From NCBI GenBank assembly GCA_945862985.1, contig CAMAZF010000004.1:1-64000 (forward strand): a DNA stretch of 64,000 bases. Reading direction: 5' to 3'. The position numbers and the translations under genes are program-made. Of the stretch, positions 4,775-9,225 are shown in pieces. A model generated the notes under the pieces. It saw nothing but the letters and a program-made list of their open reading frames with translations, searched no databases and had not been told where the DNA came from. The first letter of the stretch is position 1. Each line of letters opens with the position of its first letter. This DNA is from Bordetella parapertussis. GTDB taxonomy: Bacteria; Pseudomonadota; Gammaproteobacteria; Burkholderiales; Burkholderiaceae_A.

Positions 4775-5101
4775 TCACCCGAGAAACTCTGGCGGGCGCT
4801 TGCGCACCCACTGGATGAACTTGTCTATTTCGGGGTGTGCGCGTAAGGCCTCCCAGCTGTTGTAGCTTCGAGCGAGTTCACGGGGCTTGAGGGCCTGATG
4901 AATCTTCTGATGACAGACTTTATGGACCAGGTACTTCTCCTTGCCCCCTTGGGATCTCGGAACGAGATGATGCTCATCGATGGTGGGCCCACGCACCAGT
5001 TCACGTCCGCAGAGCGGGCAGTCTTGGGCCTCCTCGGGTAGGATGTCCTCCCCAGCGGAGGTCTGACCCTCTCTCCATCGCAGTGATCGTTTTGAAACCA
5101 T
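4775..5101 (-). CDS. HNH endonuclease-like protein
   Basis: A 108-residue protein with a zinc-finger HNH nuclease core. CPLCG at about residue 30 gives the first cysteine pair, DEHHLVPRSQGG at about 42-53 the catalytic histidines, and HKVCHQKIH near 60-68 the second metal-binding pair. The C-terminal part (ALRAHPEIDKFIQWVRKRPPEF) resembles small stand-alone HNH proteins seen in many proteobacteria. No toxin, restriction or phage gene lies beside it, so it is probably a chromosomal protein of unknown role rather than part of a mobile element. Its start is only 6 bases from the start of the divergent FrnE-like gene. Confidence 0.82.
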   Translation of the reverse strand: MVSKRSLRWREGQTSAGEDILPEEAQDCPLCGRELVRGPTIDEHHLVPRSQGGKEKYLVHKVCHQKIHQALKPRELARSYNSWEALRAHPEIDKFIQWVRKRPPEFLG

Positions 5102-5107
5102 GGACGC

Positions 5108-5761
5108 ATGATGCAGAACATTTCGATTGAAATCATCTCAGACGTCGTCTGCCCTTGGTGCTATGTGGGATTGGCGAATCTGCGTCAAGCGATTGCCCAT
5201 GCCGAGCAGCGTCAGCCGGGGATGAGCGAGCGAGTTCGCGTGCAGTGGAGTCCCTACATGCTCAACCCCGATCTGCCCTCACAGGGTATTCCTCGCACGG
5301 ACTACCTCATGGGGAAGTTCGGCACCACCAGTCTGGAGCGCTTCGGGAGGGTTCAGGCGGCGGCGCAGAACGCTGGGCTGCCGCTGCGACTTGACCTGAT
5401 TCAGGTCCAGCCCAATTCGCTAGACGCGCATGTGCTGGTGGCTGCAGCAGGCGATCAGGGCCATGCGTTGACGGACCACTTGTTTGAGGCGTTTTTTGTA
5501 GAAGGGCGAGACATCTCCAAGCGAGAGGTCTTGCTTGACGTCTGCGAGACGGCCGGCTTCGATCGGGCTCGTGCAGAGGCGGCCCTTGCGGATGCCTTGT
5601 TGGTCAAGCGGGTGCGCCACATTGCAGATGAATGGCGCGAACATGGAGTCTCGGGCGTTCCCACCTTTGTGATCCAGTGCGAGGACCGCCAGCAGGTCCT
5701 CCATGGCGCCGTCTCTCATGCCGTCATGCTGGATACCTTTTACGCCTTGGGGGCACTCTAG
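5108..5761 (+). CDS. DsbA-family thiol oxidoreductase, FrnE-like
   Basis: A 217-residue thioredoxin-fold protein with the redox motif CPWC at about residues 16-19 (SDVVCPWCYVG) and the cis-proline segment GVSGVPTFVI near residue 180. There is no signal peptide, as expected for the cytoplasmic FrnE/2-hydroxychromene isomerase-like branch rather than periplasmic DsbA. These proteins act as disulfide oxidoreductases or chaperones; the partner here is unknown. Two adjacent ATG codons (5108 and 5111) are both possible. It is the first of three closely packed genes (3-base gap to the PnuC-type transporter, then 4 bases to a kinase), so it is probably co-transcribed with them. Confidence 0.9.
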   Translation: MMQNISIEIISDVVCPWCYVGLANLRQAIAHAEQRQPGMSERVRVQWSPYMLNPDLPSQGIPRTDYLMGKFGTTSLERFGRVQAAAQNAGLPLRLDLIQVQPNSLDAHVLVAAAGDQGHALTDHLFEAFFVEGRDISKREVLLDVCETAGFDRARAEAALADALLVKRVRHIADEWREHGVSGVPTFVIQCEDRQQVLHGAVSHAVMLDTFYALGAL

Positions 5762-5764
5762 ACC

Positions 5765-6325
5765 GTGCTGCTCGTTGGTCTCGAGTGGGCGGCCGCTGGG
5801 CTCGGTCTACTTGGCGTGATTCTGGGCTTTCAACAGCGTCGCTCCACCTGGCTTGCTTGGCTGATCTCGAGCGTGCTCTACCTGGGCCTCACCTGGCATT
5901 GGGCACTCTTTGGTCAGACCCTCGTCATGGCGGCCTTTACGGGCATTTCCATCTGGGGCTATCTGAGATGGGGACAAGACTCCACTCTGAAAACGGTCAT
6001 TCCATCTCGCGGCGCGATCTGGTTCTCCATCTCTACGACCTTGTTGTTGGCCTTTGTTTTTTCGGGCGTGCTGGAGCAGAGCGGCTCTGCCGATCCGACG
6101 CTTGATGCTGGCATTGCAGCGCTGAGCCTCTGGGCCATGGTTTGGACCGCTCGTAAACATGAGGCCTGCTGGCTGCTCTGGCTGGTGGTCAATCTGCTGT
6201 CGATGGGTCTCTACGGCTCGCAGTCGCTCTGGCCCACGGTGGGCTTGTACGCGGTTCAGGCAGTGCTCTCTGGTGTGGGCCTGATGCGCTGGAGGGCGAT
6301 GAGAAGCCCCTCTGTGGCGTTGTGA
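5765..6325 (+). CDS. PnuC-family vitamin transporter, candidate thiamin transporter (PnuT)
   Basis: A 186-residue inner-membrane protein with about seven hydrophobic spans, starting at GTG 5765, three bases after the preceding stop. The pattern WLAWLISSVLYLGLTWHWALFGQ and the later SLWAMVWTARKHEACWLLW with VVNLLSMGLYG are typical of PnuC proteins, which carry nicotinamide riboside, riboflavin or thiamin by facilitated diffusion coupled to intracellular phosphorylation. The next gene is a NadR-like kinase and the gene after that is a TonB receptor behind a TPP riboswitch. This neighbourhood favours thiamin (PnuT) over nicotinamide riboside, but the choice is inference. Confidence 0.88.
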   Translation: MLLVGLEWAAAGLGLLGVILGFQQRRSTWLAWLISSVLYLGLTWHWALFGQTLVMAAFTGISIWGYLRWGQDSTLKTVIPSRGAIWFSISTTLLLAFVFSGVLEQSGSADPTLDAGIAALSLWAMVWTARKHEACWLLWLVVNLLSMGLYGSQSLWPTVGLYAVQAVLSGVGLMRWRAMRSPSVAL

Positions 6326-6329
6326 GTCG

Positions 6330-6881
6330 ATGTTGGTGCGGCCGTGGCTTGTCTCCGTGTTGGGCGGCGAATGTACCGGCAAGACCGAGCTCTGCCATGC
6401 CCTGGCTGAGCGTCATCTTGGGCTGACCTTTGAAGAAACGCTTCGTGCATGGGTAGAGCGGATGGGTCGTGCGCCCCATCAGCACGAGCAAGAGGCACTC
6501 TTTGACACTCAGTGTGAGCAAGAGCGCCGGGCCATTGAGCGTGCCCGCTCAGCAGAGGCCAGGCTGGTGTTGGTGGACTCTGGCCCGCTCATGACGGCGG
6601 TTTATAGCCAGGTTTATTTCTCCGACGACAGTCTGCTTCACCAGGCATTGCAATGGCAGGGTCGGTACGACCTGACGCTGGTCTGTTCCGATGACCTTCC
6701 GTGGATTCCTGATCCGGGCCAGAGGGACGGTGAAGCGTATCGAGCTCGCGCACAAGCTGCACTGCGCGCTGCGCTTGGAGTGGATTTTCCAGGGCTCGTC
6801 GCAGAGGTACATGGCCTTGGGCGGCAGCGGGTCTTGCTTGCTTCTGCGGCCATTGAGCGACTAAACTTCGTACGTCGCTAG
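6330..6881 (+). CDS. NadR-like P-loop kinase, possible vitamin kinase
   Basis: A 183-residue cytoplasmic P-loop ATPase. The Walker A motif GGECTGKTEL sits at about residues 12-21, as in the nicotinamide riboside kinase domain of NadR, and VLVDSGPLMTAVYS near residue 80 and the lid-like DPGQRDGEAYRARAQ near 130 also fit that group. The start ATG is 4 bases after the pnuC-type stop, so the two are translated together. In PnuC systems a partner kinase traps the imported vitamin as its phosphate. Because the next element is a TPP riboswitch, the substrate could be thiamin instead of nicotinamide riboside. The stop codon ends right where the riboswitch begins. Confidence 0.78.
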   Translation: MLVRPWLVSVLGGECTGKTELCHALAERHLGLTFEETLRAWVERMGRAPHQHEQEALFDTQCEQERRAIERARSAEARLVLVDSGPLMTAVYSQVYFSDDSLLHQALQWQGRYDLTLVCSDDLPWIPDPGQRDGEAYRARAQAALRAALGVDFPGLVAEVHGLGRQRVLLASAAIERLNFVRR

Positions 6882-6980
6882 GGGTCCCGAAAAGCCGCAG
6901 TTGCGGTCCTTGTACGAGGCGGGTGAGACATACCCTTTGAACCTGATCGAGTTAAGACTTGCGCAGGGAAGCGGAGACCG
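6882..6980 (+). promoter_or_regulatory. TPP (THI-box) riboswitch
   Basis: The conserved THI-element core is present: GGTGAGACATACCC at about 6921-6934, then GAACCTGATC, and the closing GCGCAGGGAAGC ending near 6972, with outer stem arms GGTC (6883-6886) and GACC (6976-6979). No U-run terminator follows. A pyrimidine run CCTCCCTC at about 7009-7016 can pair with the GGAG ribosome site at 7024-7027 of the TonB receptor gene, which suggests control of translation rather than transcription. It lies directly after the kinase stop codon. Confidence 0.92.
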
Positions 6981-7035
6981 TTCGTTCTGACCCTGTCCCT
7001 CGGCCTCTGCCTCCCTCATTTATTGGAGAGCACAC

Positions 7036-9225
7036 ATGGCCATGGCTTCAGATCTTCCACTCGAAAGGCTGATGAGATTCAGCCTCTGTTGCGCGCTGGC
7101 CGCATGCTCGTCGGCTGTTGGCGCAACGCCTGTTGCAAGAGACGTGCAGGAGGTCGAGATTGTGGGAGACCGGGGCAGGGGGCTCGCACGCGTCTCCGAC
7201 CTGCTCGCTCCCATCACGGGGTCTGACTGGCTCCGTCAGCCCAGCAGCCTCTCGGTGATCAACGTTCGAGAGGGCAAGGCCCTGGGTGCGCAGCGCATGG
7301 TCGATCTGATGCAACGGGACCCGTCGGTCGAGCTGAACTATGCGCCCTTGGGCTACTACGAGAGTCTTCAGGTGCGGGGATTTGCCGTAGATCCCGTGCT
7401 CGGTTATCGGGTGAACGGACTGCCCGTCGTCGGTGAGATGCCGTTCTGGATGCGCACCTACGACACCCTCGAGTTCGTACGAGGACCTGTAGGTGCTTGG
7501 CTGGGTGCCGGCGCCGGGGGAGGGCTCATCAACCTGGTGACCTTGCGACCAGGGGCAGACCGAGTTCTGGAGGTGCAGGCGCAGAACCATGGCGGGTCCT
7601 CTGTAGCCCTGGATGGCAGTTGGCGCTTGTCTGGTGGGGCGTCAGCTCGGCTCGTCCTGGAGAATGCACGACTGCGGCCAGAGGCTCAGGCGGCTCGAGG
7701 CAATGCTCAGGGTGCCTCGCTGAGCGTAGATGGCAGCCTGGGTGCATGGGAGTTTGAGGGCGACCTCCAACATCGCAGGCAGTCCCAGATCACGCAGCCT
7801 GGTTCACAGCTTTTGGGCGGACAATCGCTTGCACCACTGAATCCAGACCTGGTGCTTGGATATTCAGCCTGGTCTGAGCCCACCACCTTCCACTCAGACC
7901 TCGCGCAGATCCGACTCTCTCGACCCCTCCCGGAGCTTGCCGCAGGCTGGCGAACGCAATGGGGACTCTCGCGTCATGAGGTGCGAACAGACGACCGGAG
8001 CAGCTTCCCCTGGGGCTGCTCAAATGGCACCGATCCTTACTATCTCTTCTGTTCGAATGGGGACTTCACCCTCTGGGACTATGCCAGCCTGAATGAGCGT
8101 CGTTCAGTGAATGGCGCACAAGCGATTGCCTATGGCCCTCTGAGGGTCTTGGGGTGGCCAGGACAAGCCAGCACCGGCCTCGCTGCTTTGCGTCGATCTA
8201 CGCACCTGCCGAGCTATCGCTGGCAGCCAACGGACGCGGGGTATGTGGACACCGGAAATGTATTCGCCGAACAATGGTCCGGTTCGCCACTTCCCGCGGC
8301 ATCTGTGGATGCCTTCCGCTCGGTGGTGCAGCAGCGCTCAGCATGGCTCTCCTGGACCGGTCGAGGTCGCGGCGGCCTGCTCCCGCAGCCCAGCCTCACC
8401 CTGAGATCGGTCACGCTCAAGCAGGGCTATGAGAGTGCATTCTGGACACCGAGACCTTGGACATCTGTGTCGGAGTCCCGGCTGCTTGGGGCAATCGGGC
8501 TGAGCGTTTCTCCGAGCGACCATCAGCGCTGGAGCATCAGCTGGCGCGAAGATCTGGAAGCGGGTCAGCGCGTGCCGGTCACGGCCGCGAATGATGGCGA
8601 ATTGCTTGCGCCTCGGGTGTTGCAAGCGCTGGAGCTGGGCTACAAATGGCGTGGCGCTGGCGCAAATCGACTGTCACTCACCGTTTTTCACAGCGAGCGG
8701 CCCTATGACCTTCGACTGGATGAAAGCCCACTTGCGCCCTGGCCAGGGCCCTATCTTCGTCGAGGTCGGGAATCGCGCACAGGCTTCGAATGGGTGACGC
8801 AGACTGAGCTGACATCGGCCTGGATGCTTGAATGGACGGGCAGTTGGATCACCTCTCGCATCACCGAGACGGGTCTGAACTGGCTCGATGGGACCGAGGT
8901 TTCTAATCTGCCTCGTCTTCGCACCCGCCTGCAGATGAGTCGCACCGAGACAGAGGACACTCCTGGCCTACAGCTTGCGTCGACCGTCGTTTCCCCACGA
9001 TGGGCCAACCGTGGAGAGGGCATTCGACTCCCAGGGCATGTGCGGCTGGACGCGGGCATGAGCCTCCCGACAGCCTGGACGGGTCGTCATCTTCGGGTCC
9101 AGATCGCGGTCCAGAATCTGCTGGATCGTCGCTATTGGGCCGATGCCTCTGAGTTCTTGGGTGATGCATATCTGACGCCAGGGCAGGGCCGAATCGTCTC
9201 TCTCAATCTCTCTGTTCCCCTGTAA
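7036..9225 (+). CDS. TonB-dependent outer-membrane receptor, probably for thiamin
   Basis: A 729-residue outer-membrane receptor. The N-terminus has a signal-like hydrophobic stretch ending near residue 30 (SSAVGATPVA). The plug domain follows with SVINVREGKALGAQRMVDLMQRDPSVEL and LEFVRGPVGAWLGAGAGGGLINLVT, matching the plug's final strand. The rest is a beta-barrel of alternating polar and hydrophobic strands ending with GQGRIVSLNLSVPL, close to the usual aromatic C-terminal strand but with leucine as the last residue. Start ATG at 7036 is set by GGAGAG at 7024. A TPP riboswitch lies in its leader, so thiamin or a derivative is the probable cargo. No TonB-ExbBD genes are in the window. Confidence 0.93.
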   Translation: MAMASDLPLERLMRFSLCCALAACSSAVGATPVARDVQEVEIVGDRGRGLARVSDLLAPITGSDWLRQPSSLSVINVREGKALGAQRMVDLMQRDPSVELNYAPLGYYESLQVRGFAVDPVLGYRVNGLPVVGEMPFWMRTYDTLEFVRGPVGAWLGAGAGGGLINLVTLRPGADRVLEVQAQNHGGSSVALDGSWRLSGGASARLVLENARLRPEAQAARGNAQGASLSVDGSLGAWEFEGDLQHRRQSQITQPGSQLLGGQSLAPLNPDLVLGYSAWSEPTTFHSDLAQIRLSRPLPELAAGWRTQWGLSRHEVRTDDRSSFPWGCSNGTDPYYLFCSNGDFTLWDYASLNERRSVNGAQAIAYGPLRVLGWPGQASTGLAALRRSTHLPSYRWQPTDAGYVDTGNVFAEQWSGSPLPAASVDAFRSVVQQRSAWLSWTGRGRGGLLPQPSLTLRSVTLKQGYESAFWTPRPWTSVSESRLLGAIGLSVSPSDHQRWSISWREDLEAGQRVPVTAANDGELLAPRVLQALELGYKWRGAGANRLSLTVFHSERPYDLRLDESPLAPWPGPYLRRGRESRTGFEWVTQTELTSAWMLEWTGSWITSRITETGLNWLDGTEVSNLPRLRTRLQMSRTETEDTPGLQLASTVVSPRWANRGEGIRLPGHVRLDAGMSLPTAWTGRHLRVQIAVQNLLDRRYWADASEFLGDAYLTPGQGRIVSLNLSVPL

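What the first reader, a model, noticed from the sequence alone, without database searches (positions are those of the whole stretch)
5765..9225. TPP-riboswitch locus pairing a TonB receptor with a PnuC-type transporter and a NadR-like kinase
PnuC plus NadR-like kinase is normally read as nicotinamide riboside salvage. Here the same strand continues into a clear THI-box riboswitch and a TonB receptor within 160 bases of the kinase stop. This suggests a complete thiamin route: outer-membrane receptor, PnuC-type inner transporter and a trapping kinase that phosphorylates thiamin. A NadR-like thiamin kinase would be an unusual use of that fold. The riboswitch lies between kinase and receptor, so only the receptor may be under direct control.
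Basis: partly seen in the sequence, partly recalled or inferred. Interest (0 to 1): 0.62.

Follow-up and report, generated by a model that had tools for sequence, protein, structure and literature searches.

The report
Thiamin uptake cassette with NadR-like kinase
In a group of betaproteobacteria that appear to have lost vitamin B1 synthesis, a B1-sensing RNA, an outer-membrane receptor, an inner-membrane channel and a small kinase stay together as a B1 uptake kit, and the kinase is probably an unrecognised thiamin kinase built on a fold known from vitamin B3 salvage.

Summary
In detail: PnuC-type transporter (5765-6325), NadR-like kinase (6330-6881), TPP riboswitch (6870-6986, 62.8 bits) and TonB receptor (7036-9225) lie in order on the + strand. 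Comparative genomics supports the thiamin reading. Of 26 genomes of the family, the same 8 carry transporter and kinase; all 8 lack ThiC and keep ThiL and NadA, and 7 of 8 lack ThiE. None of the 26 has TPK, and none reaches the ThiK cut-off. The kinase fits the missing thiamin-to-ThMP step. In sister genome G002 the slot between glcB/maoC and marR/actP holds the thiamin biosynthesis operon instead. In the order, the 11 of 11 highest-scoring kinases outside the genus sit near a TPP riboswitch and a TonB receptor, in genomes without ThiC. Three gene arrangements occur; in 9 loci the riboswitch precedes TonB, PnuC and kinase on one strand. More distant relatives often lack the riboswitch, so the family may have several substrates. 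Substrates were not tested biochemically, and pocket residues did not discriminate. TPP-controlled PnuT systems are known from Bacteroidetes, with Tnr3 as enzyme; the NadR-fold kinase in that place is the new variant.

The parts
5765..6325 (+). PnuC/PnuT-type inner-membrane transporter, GTG start, 186 aa, 7 helices in the model; proposed thiamin facilitator
   Evidence: Pfam PF04973 108.1 bits; AlphaFold2 pLDDT 93.4; Foldseek best hit PnuC 4qtn, E 9.8e-07, TM 0.77
6330..6881 (+). NadR-like P-loop kinase (RNK domain alone, 183 aa); proposed thiamin kinase (thiamin to ThMP)
   Evidence: Pfam AAA_28 85.9 bits; AlphaFold2 pLDDT 94.8; Foldseek best hit NadR 8x7f, E 1.5e-07, TM 0.78; context
6870..6986 (+). 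TPP riboswitch (THI element) overlapping the 3' end of the kinase ORF
   Evidence: Rfam RF00059 62.8 bits, gathering 54.3; only TPP riboswitch found in the assembly
7008..7032 (+). Possible Shine-Dalgarno (GGAG 7025-7028) inside a hairpin with CUCC 7011-7014; candidate translational switch for the receptor
   Evidence: Read from the sequence and the minimum-energy fold; the fold of 6870-7060 as a whole is not better than shuffles (z 0.56), so this is inference
7036..9225 (+). TonB-dependent outer-membrane receptor, 729 aa; proposed thiamin receptor
   Evidence: Plug PF07715 32.3 bits; TIGR01783 148.2 bits, below its cut-off 223.5; homologues next to TPP riboswitches in relatives

Best explanation
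The locus is a thiamin (vitamin B1) scavenging cassette that has taken the place of thiamin biosynthesis. When TPP is low the riboswitch leaves the receptor mRNA active. The TonB receptor brings thiamin across the outer membrane, the PnuC-type protein (functionally a PnuT) lets it equilibrate across the inner membrane, and the NadR-like kinase phosphorylates it to thiamin monophosphate, which is trapped and passed to ThiL to make TPP. TPP then binds the riboswitch and turns receptor synthesis down. Shown by sequence: the genes, the riboswitch, the folds (predicted), conserved linkage in three arrangements, and which pathway genes were and were not found. Inferred: the substrate of the transporter, the substrate and product of the kinase, the OFF direction and the level of the switch.
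For: (1) The same 8 of 26 family genomes carry kinase and transporter. (2) All 8 lack ThiC, while 16 of the other 18 have it (Fisher p 2.9e-05; the genomes are related, so p is only a guide). (3) ThiE has no match in 7 of the 8 and a match in 17 of the other 18 (those 17 score 115.9-144.7 bits, below the curated cut-off 145.1). (4) ThiL is over its cut-off in all 8, TPK in 0 of 26, ThiK over its cut-off in 0 of 26: a thiamin-to-ThMP step is needed and none of the sought enzymes supplies it. (5) NadA is found in all 8, so NR salvage does not look required for NAD. (6) In sister genome G002 the slot between glcB/maoC and marR/actP holds the thi operon with its TPP riboswitch. (7) Outside the genus, the 11 of 11 kinases scoring at least 160 bits lie in genomes without a ThiC match and near a TPP riboswitch and a TonB receptor. 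(8) TPP > TonB > PnuC > kinase on one strand in 9 loci.
Against: No biochemistry. The transporter passes NCBI's model for nicotinamide riboside PnuC (58.3 bits, cut-off 42.45), though all 43 PnuC proteins of A5, riboswitch-linked or not, match that model. Pocket tryptophans W136/W139 and N143 are shared with E. coli PnuC, so the pocket does not speak for thiamin. Among 15 order kinases at 120-155 bits, 9 have no TPP riboswitch in the stretch searched and 11 lie in ThiC-bearing genomes; 5 of the 6 riboswitch-linked ones also have ThiC. Only 12 of 80 named loci had a riboswitch by model R1. In this genome the riboswitch lies after, not before, transporter and kinase. G005 keeps ThiM and ThiE. 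Weak ThiK-model matches (18.7-34.4 bits, cut-off 299.45) occur in 8 of 26 genomes, 3 of them pair-bearing; another kinase of that fold could do the job. The assembly is 91.5% complete, so an absent gene could be unassembled.
Confidence: 0.82

Rival explanations
1. Ordinary nicotinamide riboside salvage: PnuC imports NR and the NadR-like kinase makes NMN; the TPP-controlled TonB receptor is merely a neighbour.
For: Family names and fold: TIGR01528 over its cut-off, NadR RNK fold, shared pocket residues.
Against: Presence of the pair tracks absence of ThiC, not loss of NAD synthesis (NadA in all 8). The genes stay linked in three arrangements, with pair and receptor behind one TPP riboswitch in 9 loci. 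The kinase lacks an NMNAT domain (183 aa; TIGR01526 49.4 bits against 341.15).
Confidence: 0.07
2. Thiamin uptake through TonB and PnuT is real, but the kinase acts on something else or is a general salvage kinase, and ThMP arises from an unrecognised enzyme or from imported ThMP.
For: Homologues of the kinase occur in loci where no PnuC match was seen and without a riboswitch, and in ThiC-bearing genomes, so the family need not be thiamin-specific. Weak ThiK-like matches exist in some genomes.
Against: In 19 of the 20 riboswitch loci laid out the kinase lies next to a PnuC match (L178 had none; L075 and L077, not in that list, have the riboswitch one gene away and no PnuC match). No TPK and no ThiK over its cut-off while ThiL is kept.
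Confidence: 0.09
3. The system takes up a thiamin precursor (HMP or thiazole) rather than thiamin.
For: G005 keeps ThiM and ThiE behind a second TPP riboswitch.
Against: 7 of 8 pair-bearing genomes have no ThiE match and so no evident way to join precursors.
Confidence: 0.02

Closest known systems
OMthi - pnuT - tnr3 of gut Bacteroidetes (PMC5613172, passages read)
   Same: TPP-riboswitch-linked outer-membrane receptor, PnuT inner-membrane transporter and a phosphorylating enzyme; a single operon in most of the genomes studied there
   Different: There the enzyme is Tnr3, called thiamine pyrophosphorylase in that paper; here it is a NadR-fold kinase that would make ThMP for ThiL, and in this genome the riboswitch lies between kinase and receptor
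THI-element-linked PnuC of acI Actinobacteria (PMC5301498, passages read)
   Same: PnuC-annotated gene with a TPP riboswitch in a thiamin auxotroph, reread as PnuT
   Different: The passages read name no TonB receptor and no kinase partner
PnuC - NadR nicotinamide riboside salvage (NadR paper PMC7221760, passages read; structures 4qtn, 8x7f, 6gyf, 1lw7)
   Same: Fold of the transporter and of the kinase domain
   Different: Here no NMNAT domain, a TPP riboswitch next door, and NadA retained
ThiK (YcfN) thiamin kinase of E. coli, NCBIfam TIGR02721
   Same: Proposed reaction: thiamin to ThMP, followed by ThiL (recalled)
   Different: A different family; the window kinase does not match its model and none of the 26 genomes has a match over its cut-off

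Membership tests
TPP riboswitch (RF00059) | Covariance-model score above the curated gathering score, full length | tested here: met
   62.8 bits against 54.3, positions 1-105
Pnu transporter family (PF04973) | Profile match and PnuC fold | tested here: met
   108.1 bits; 4qtn best structural hit, TM 0.77
PnuT (thiamin Pnu) | TPP-riboswitch linkage of the transporter gene | tested here: met
   Linked here, though upstream of the riboswitch; downstream of it on the same strand in 9 related loci
PnuT (thiamin Pnu) | Thiamin-specific pocket residues | tested here: inconclusive
   W136, W139 and N143 shared with E. coli PnuC; no characterised PnuT sequence was at hand
PnuT (thiamin Pnu) | Thiamin transport | not testable with these tools
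   Needs an uptake assay
PnuC (nicotinamide riboside transporter, TIGR01528) | Equivalog score over cut-off | tested here: met
   58.3 against 42.45; all 43 members of A5 match the model at E 0.001 or better, so it does not separate substrates
PnuC (nicotinamide riboside transporter, TIGR01528) | Nicotinamide riboside transport | not testable with these tools
   Needs an uptake assay
NadR | RNK-type P-loop kinase domain | tested here: met
   Foldseek 8x7f E 1.5e-07, TM 0.78
NadR | NMN adenylyltransferase domain and full-length equivalog score | tested here: not met
   183 aa, only positions 164-299 of 325 matched, 49.4 bits against 341.15
ThiK / TPK (known thiamin kinases) | Match to TIGR02721 or PF04263 | tested here: not met
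   The window kinase has no such match at E 0.1; genomes
OMthi / omr1 thiamin receptor | TonB-dependent receptor behind a TPP riboswitch | tested here: met
   49 bases between the riboswitch match and the receptor ATG
OMthi / omr1 thiamin receptor | Thiamin binding | not testable with these tools
   Needs a binding or uptake assay

The most novel reading that the evidence does not exclude
The kinase founds an unrecognised class of thiamin kinase on the NadR ribosylnicotinamide-kinase fold. It is the missing thiamin-to-ThMP step of many ThiC-less Burkholderiales, travels with a PnuT and a TonB receptor as an uptake cassette that is rearranged but kept together, and can stand at the chromosomal slot where a sister genome has the biosynthetic operon. 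Genes now named nicotinamide riboside transporter and NadR-like ATPase in these lineages would be misnamed.
Probability: 0.72. Interest if true: 0.7.

Novelty: new variant of a known kind. Interest (0 to 1): 0.62.

Why it matters
It proposes a gene for a reaction for which I found no known enzyme in these bacteria, gives a complete receptor-to-cofactor route, and predicts that names such as nicotinamide riboside transporter and NadR-like mislead for a set of Burkholderiales. Most aquatic bacterioplankton are reported to be unable to make vitamin B1 (PMC10881298, abstract start and passages), and the gene list of that survey, which has omr1 but neither a Pnu transporter nor a kinase of this kind, would miss two of the three parts. 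One purified enzyme decides it.

Tried and rejected
Pocket residues: in the alignment with E. coli PnuC the two tryptophans are in all 10 rows and the asparagine in 9 of 10, so they separate nothing; the 4qtn match shows the same. NCBIfam naming: TIGR01528 matches all 43 PnuC proteins of A5. Promoter and terminator scan of 4900-7200 found none (0.3 and 2.0 expected in shuffles). Fold of 6870-7060: not better than shuffles (z 0.56); the Shine-Dalgarno hairpin is only a suggestion. In that tree L060 and L015 count as without riboswitch, although L060's contig begins inside TonB and L015's contig ends at the kinase. L016 (partial kinase) and 8 duplicate loci were dropped before the tree: 105 of 114 rows used. 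Rfam on 12 loci without an R1 hit found no TPP element. Control on R1: in the 24 loci given to both, it recovered all 15 Rfam hits. Literature: one search used the spelling thiamin kinase and so missed thiamine kinase; repeated with more terms. The searches, seen as listings (several longer than what was listed; one search listed 25 of 50) plus passages of seven papers (searches cover six of them in full use; PMC12442306 gave one passage), showed no paper proposing a NadR-like thiamin kinase. The library is open-licence only; the PnuT paper of Jaehme and colleagues was not held and the Pnu reviews were not sought by id, so prior notice there is possible.
Full report
What is there. The + strand carries a PnuC-type transporter (5765-6325), a NadR-like kinase (6330-6881), a TPP riboswitch (6870-6986) and a TonB receptor (7036-9225). 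Three bases separate the transporter from the stop of a DsbA-family gene (5108-5761), and four separate the kinase from the transporter, so the pair probably shares an upstream transcript (inference). The riboswitch overlaps the last 12 bases of the kinase ORF, and 49 bases lie between it and the receptor ATG. The assembly (2.17 Mb, 60 contigs, 91.5% complete) shows one TPP riboswitch and one PF04973 transporter.

Folds. AlphaFold2 with 56 sequences gives the kinase at pLDDT 94.8; its best PDB matches are NadR proteins (8x7f E 1.5e-07, TM 0.78). The transporter model (pLDDT 93.4, 7 helices) matches PnuC 4qtn (TM 0.77). The kinase is the RNK part alone: TIGR01526 matches over positions 164-299 of 325 at 49.4 bits, cut-off 341.15.

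Conserved linkage in the genus. Of 26 genomes in the family, 8 (all of the window's genus, which has 11 here) have a kinase match and the same 8 have PF04973. In G006 the kinase is a contig-end fragment and the transporter lies on another contig, so their adjacency is not seen there. Of the seven relatives with a kinase match, six show a TPP riboswitch just downstream; the seventh, G008, has only 43 bases of contig there, but a riboswitch (39 bits) followed by a receptor-like frame starts another of its contigs. In L010, L011, L013 and L014 the order PnuC - kinase - riboswitch - TonB - MarR is complete; L012 and L016 are cut by contig ends. Kinases are 36-43% and transporters 34-40% identical to the window's, so the order is kept across much divergence. 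Three of the six riboswitches (L013, L014, L016) score 48.5, 48.7 and 40.8 bits, below the gathering score 54.3.

Pathway logic. All 8 pair-bearing genomes lack a ThiC match; the 3 others of the genus have one, as do 13 of 15 in the two other genera. ThiE has no match in 7 of the 8; G005 alone has one, next to a ThiM-type kinase behind a second TPP riboswitch. Of the other 18 genomes 17 have a ThiE match, all below the curated cut-off. ThiL passes its cut-off in all 8 and in 24 of 26 overall. TPK (PF04263) is found in 0 of 26. ThiK (TIGR02721) reaches its cut-off in 0 of 26; weak matches of 18.7-34.4 bits (cut-off 299.45) occur in 8 genomes, among them the pair-bearing G001, G003 and G010. NadA is found in all 8; other NAD genes were not sought. 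So these cells seem unable to make thiamin, keep the enzyme that needs ThMP, show no known thiamin kinase, and do not look dependent on NR for NAD. Incomplete assemblies can hide genes, but G001 (99% complete), G003 (97%), G010 (93%) and G006 (92%) show the same pattern.

Same slot, other solution. In the window the cassette lies between glcB - maoC - HNH - dsbA-like on one side and marR - actP on the other (gene names for these flanks partly by my reading; MarR and DsbA by Pfam). In G002, of the same genus and without the pair, the stretch between glcB/maoC and marR/actP holds thiE-like, thiC and thiD genes headed by the TPP riboswitch; in G004 glcB and HNH stand on one side and an actP relative on the other, with no MarR match; in G007 only maoC and HNH match, on one side. 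In G013 and G017 of the neighbouring genus, actP and CBS-domain relatives also border the riboswitch end of the thi operon; in G020 actP lies further off. The uptake cassette thus stands where at least one sister genome has the biosynthetic operon.

Beyond the genus. A profile of the seven kinases found a match at E 1e-10 in 61 of 399 genomes of the order. I asked for ThiC in the 57 that lie outside the genus: 17 of 57 lack it. Grouped by kinase score: 11 of 11 at 160 bits or more (families f10, f19, f22, f38); 4 of 15 at 120-155 bits; 2 of 31 below 110 bits. ThiC was not measured in kinase-free genomes of those families. Around the 26 kinases of at least 120 bits I fetched 5 to 11 kb. TPP riboswitches: 11 of 11 in the top group (10 over gathering; L173 cut by the contig end), 6 of 15 in the next (5 over gathering; L192 by model R1; L183 and L192 were not given to Rfam). 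TonB matches lie at all 11 top loci.

Arrangements (20 loci with a riboswitch). TPP > TonB > PnuC > kinase on one strand: L170, L173-L177, L179, L180 and L061 (9 loci). PnuC > kinase > TPP > TonB as in the window: L171, L172, L062, L126, and L178 where the PnuC query found no match. PnuC > kinase facing TPP > TonB tail to tail: L184, L185, L186, L188, L191, L192. The genes and the riboswitch therefore stay together through rearrangement. In L061 the three frames overlap.

Results that cut the other way. Among 80 named loci (the best 80 of 198) only 12 carry a riboswitch found by R1, 5 of them in the window's genus; two more of the 12 are the same contigs as order loci L171 and L175. Variovorax, Comamonas-type and actinobacterial homologues showed none, apart from the two Rhodoferax loci L075 and L077; 12 of the loci without a hit, checked with Rfam, gave no TPP element. 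Some of the 80 are cut by contig ends, and flanks were 6 kb. Five of the six tail-to-tail loci are in ThiC-bearing genomes. So the thiamin reading is strong for the window's genus and the top-scoring group, and open for the wider family.

How it most likely works. Low TPP leaves the riboswitch unbound and the receptor is made; thiamin crosses the outer membrane with TonB energy, equilibrates through the PnuC-type protein, is trapped as ThMP by the kinase, and ThiL makes TPP. The passive, trapping-dependent mode is recalled for PnuT (the title of Jaehme 2018 was seen in reference lists; the paper itself was not held). A CUCC at 7011-7014 pairs in the minimum-energy fold with the GGAG at 7025-7028, which would allow translational control, but the fold has no statistical support.

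What is known. Bacteroidetes have OMthi, pnuT and tnr3 with TPP riboswitches, with genetic evidence for transport (PMC5613172, passages). acI Actinobacteria have a PnuC gene behind a THI element, reread as PnuT (PMC5301498, passages). The authors of PMC7749635 state that the riboswitch class predicts the Pnu substrate (passages). None of these passages names a NadR-like kinase as thiamin kinase, and my searches showed none (listings). The receptor-transporter idea is thus known; the kinase is the new part.

Verdict. A new variant of a known kind. Confidence is high that this is a thiamin uptake locus and good that the kinase makes ThMP; only an assay can settle the latter.

Noticed in passing
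L018 (G005:C3:500459-503549): A second TPP riboswitch in G005 precedes a hydroxyethylthiazole kinase (PF02110) and a thiamin-phosphate synthase (PF02581): precursor salvage beside the uptake cassette.
   Followed up: partly
L075:5968-10374 and L077:4682-10989 (Rhodoferax): A relative of the kinase with no PnuC match lies one gene upstream of a TPP riboswitch that in L075 precedes a periplasmic binding protein (PF13343); by my reading a thiBPQ-like ABC transporter follows. A second link of this kinase family to thiamin.
   Followed up: partly
L197 (G002:C3:19000-36000): The thiamin biosynthesis operon with its TPP riboswitch sits between relatives of the genes that flank the uptake cassette in the window.
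   Followed up: yes
L013:4517-4610, L014:4899-4992, L016:4244-4338: TPP riboswitches of these three loci score below the Rfam gathering score (48.5, 48.7, 40.8 bits) and have a shortened 5' half in alignment A3; they may be diverging.
   Followed up: no
L067, L073, L078, L080, L082, L087, L088: Metagenome-assembled records titled Bifidobacterium breve group in the kinase tree with other actinobacterial environmental records; the species label looks doubtful.
   Followed up: no
L100, L103, L104, L107, L119, L134, L137 and similar Comamonas- and Variovorax-type loci: PnuC-kinase pairs or kinases without a PnuC match, and with no TPP riboswitch found; neighbours look like enolase, ftsB or hslO genes by my reading of the frames. 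Substrate unknown and worth a separate look.
   Followed up: partly
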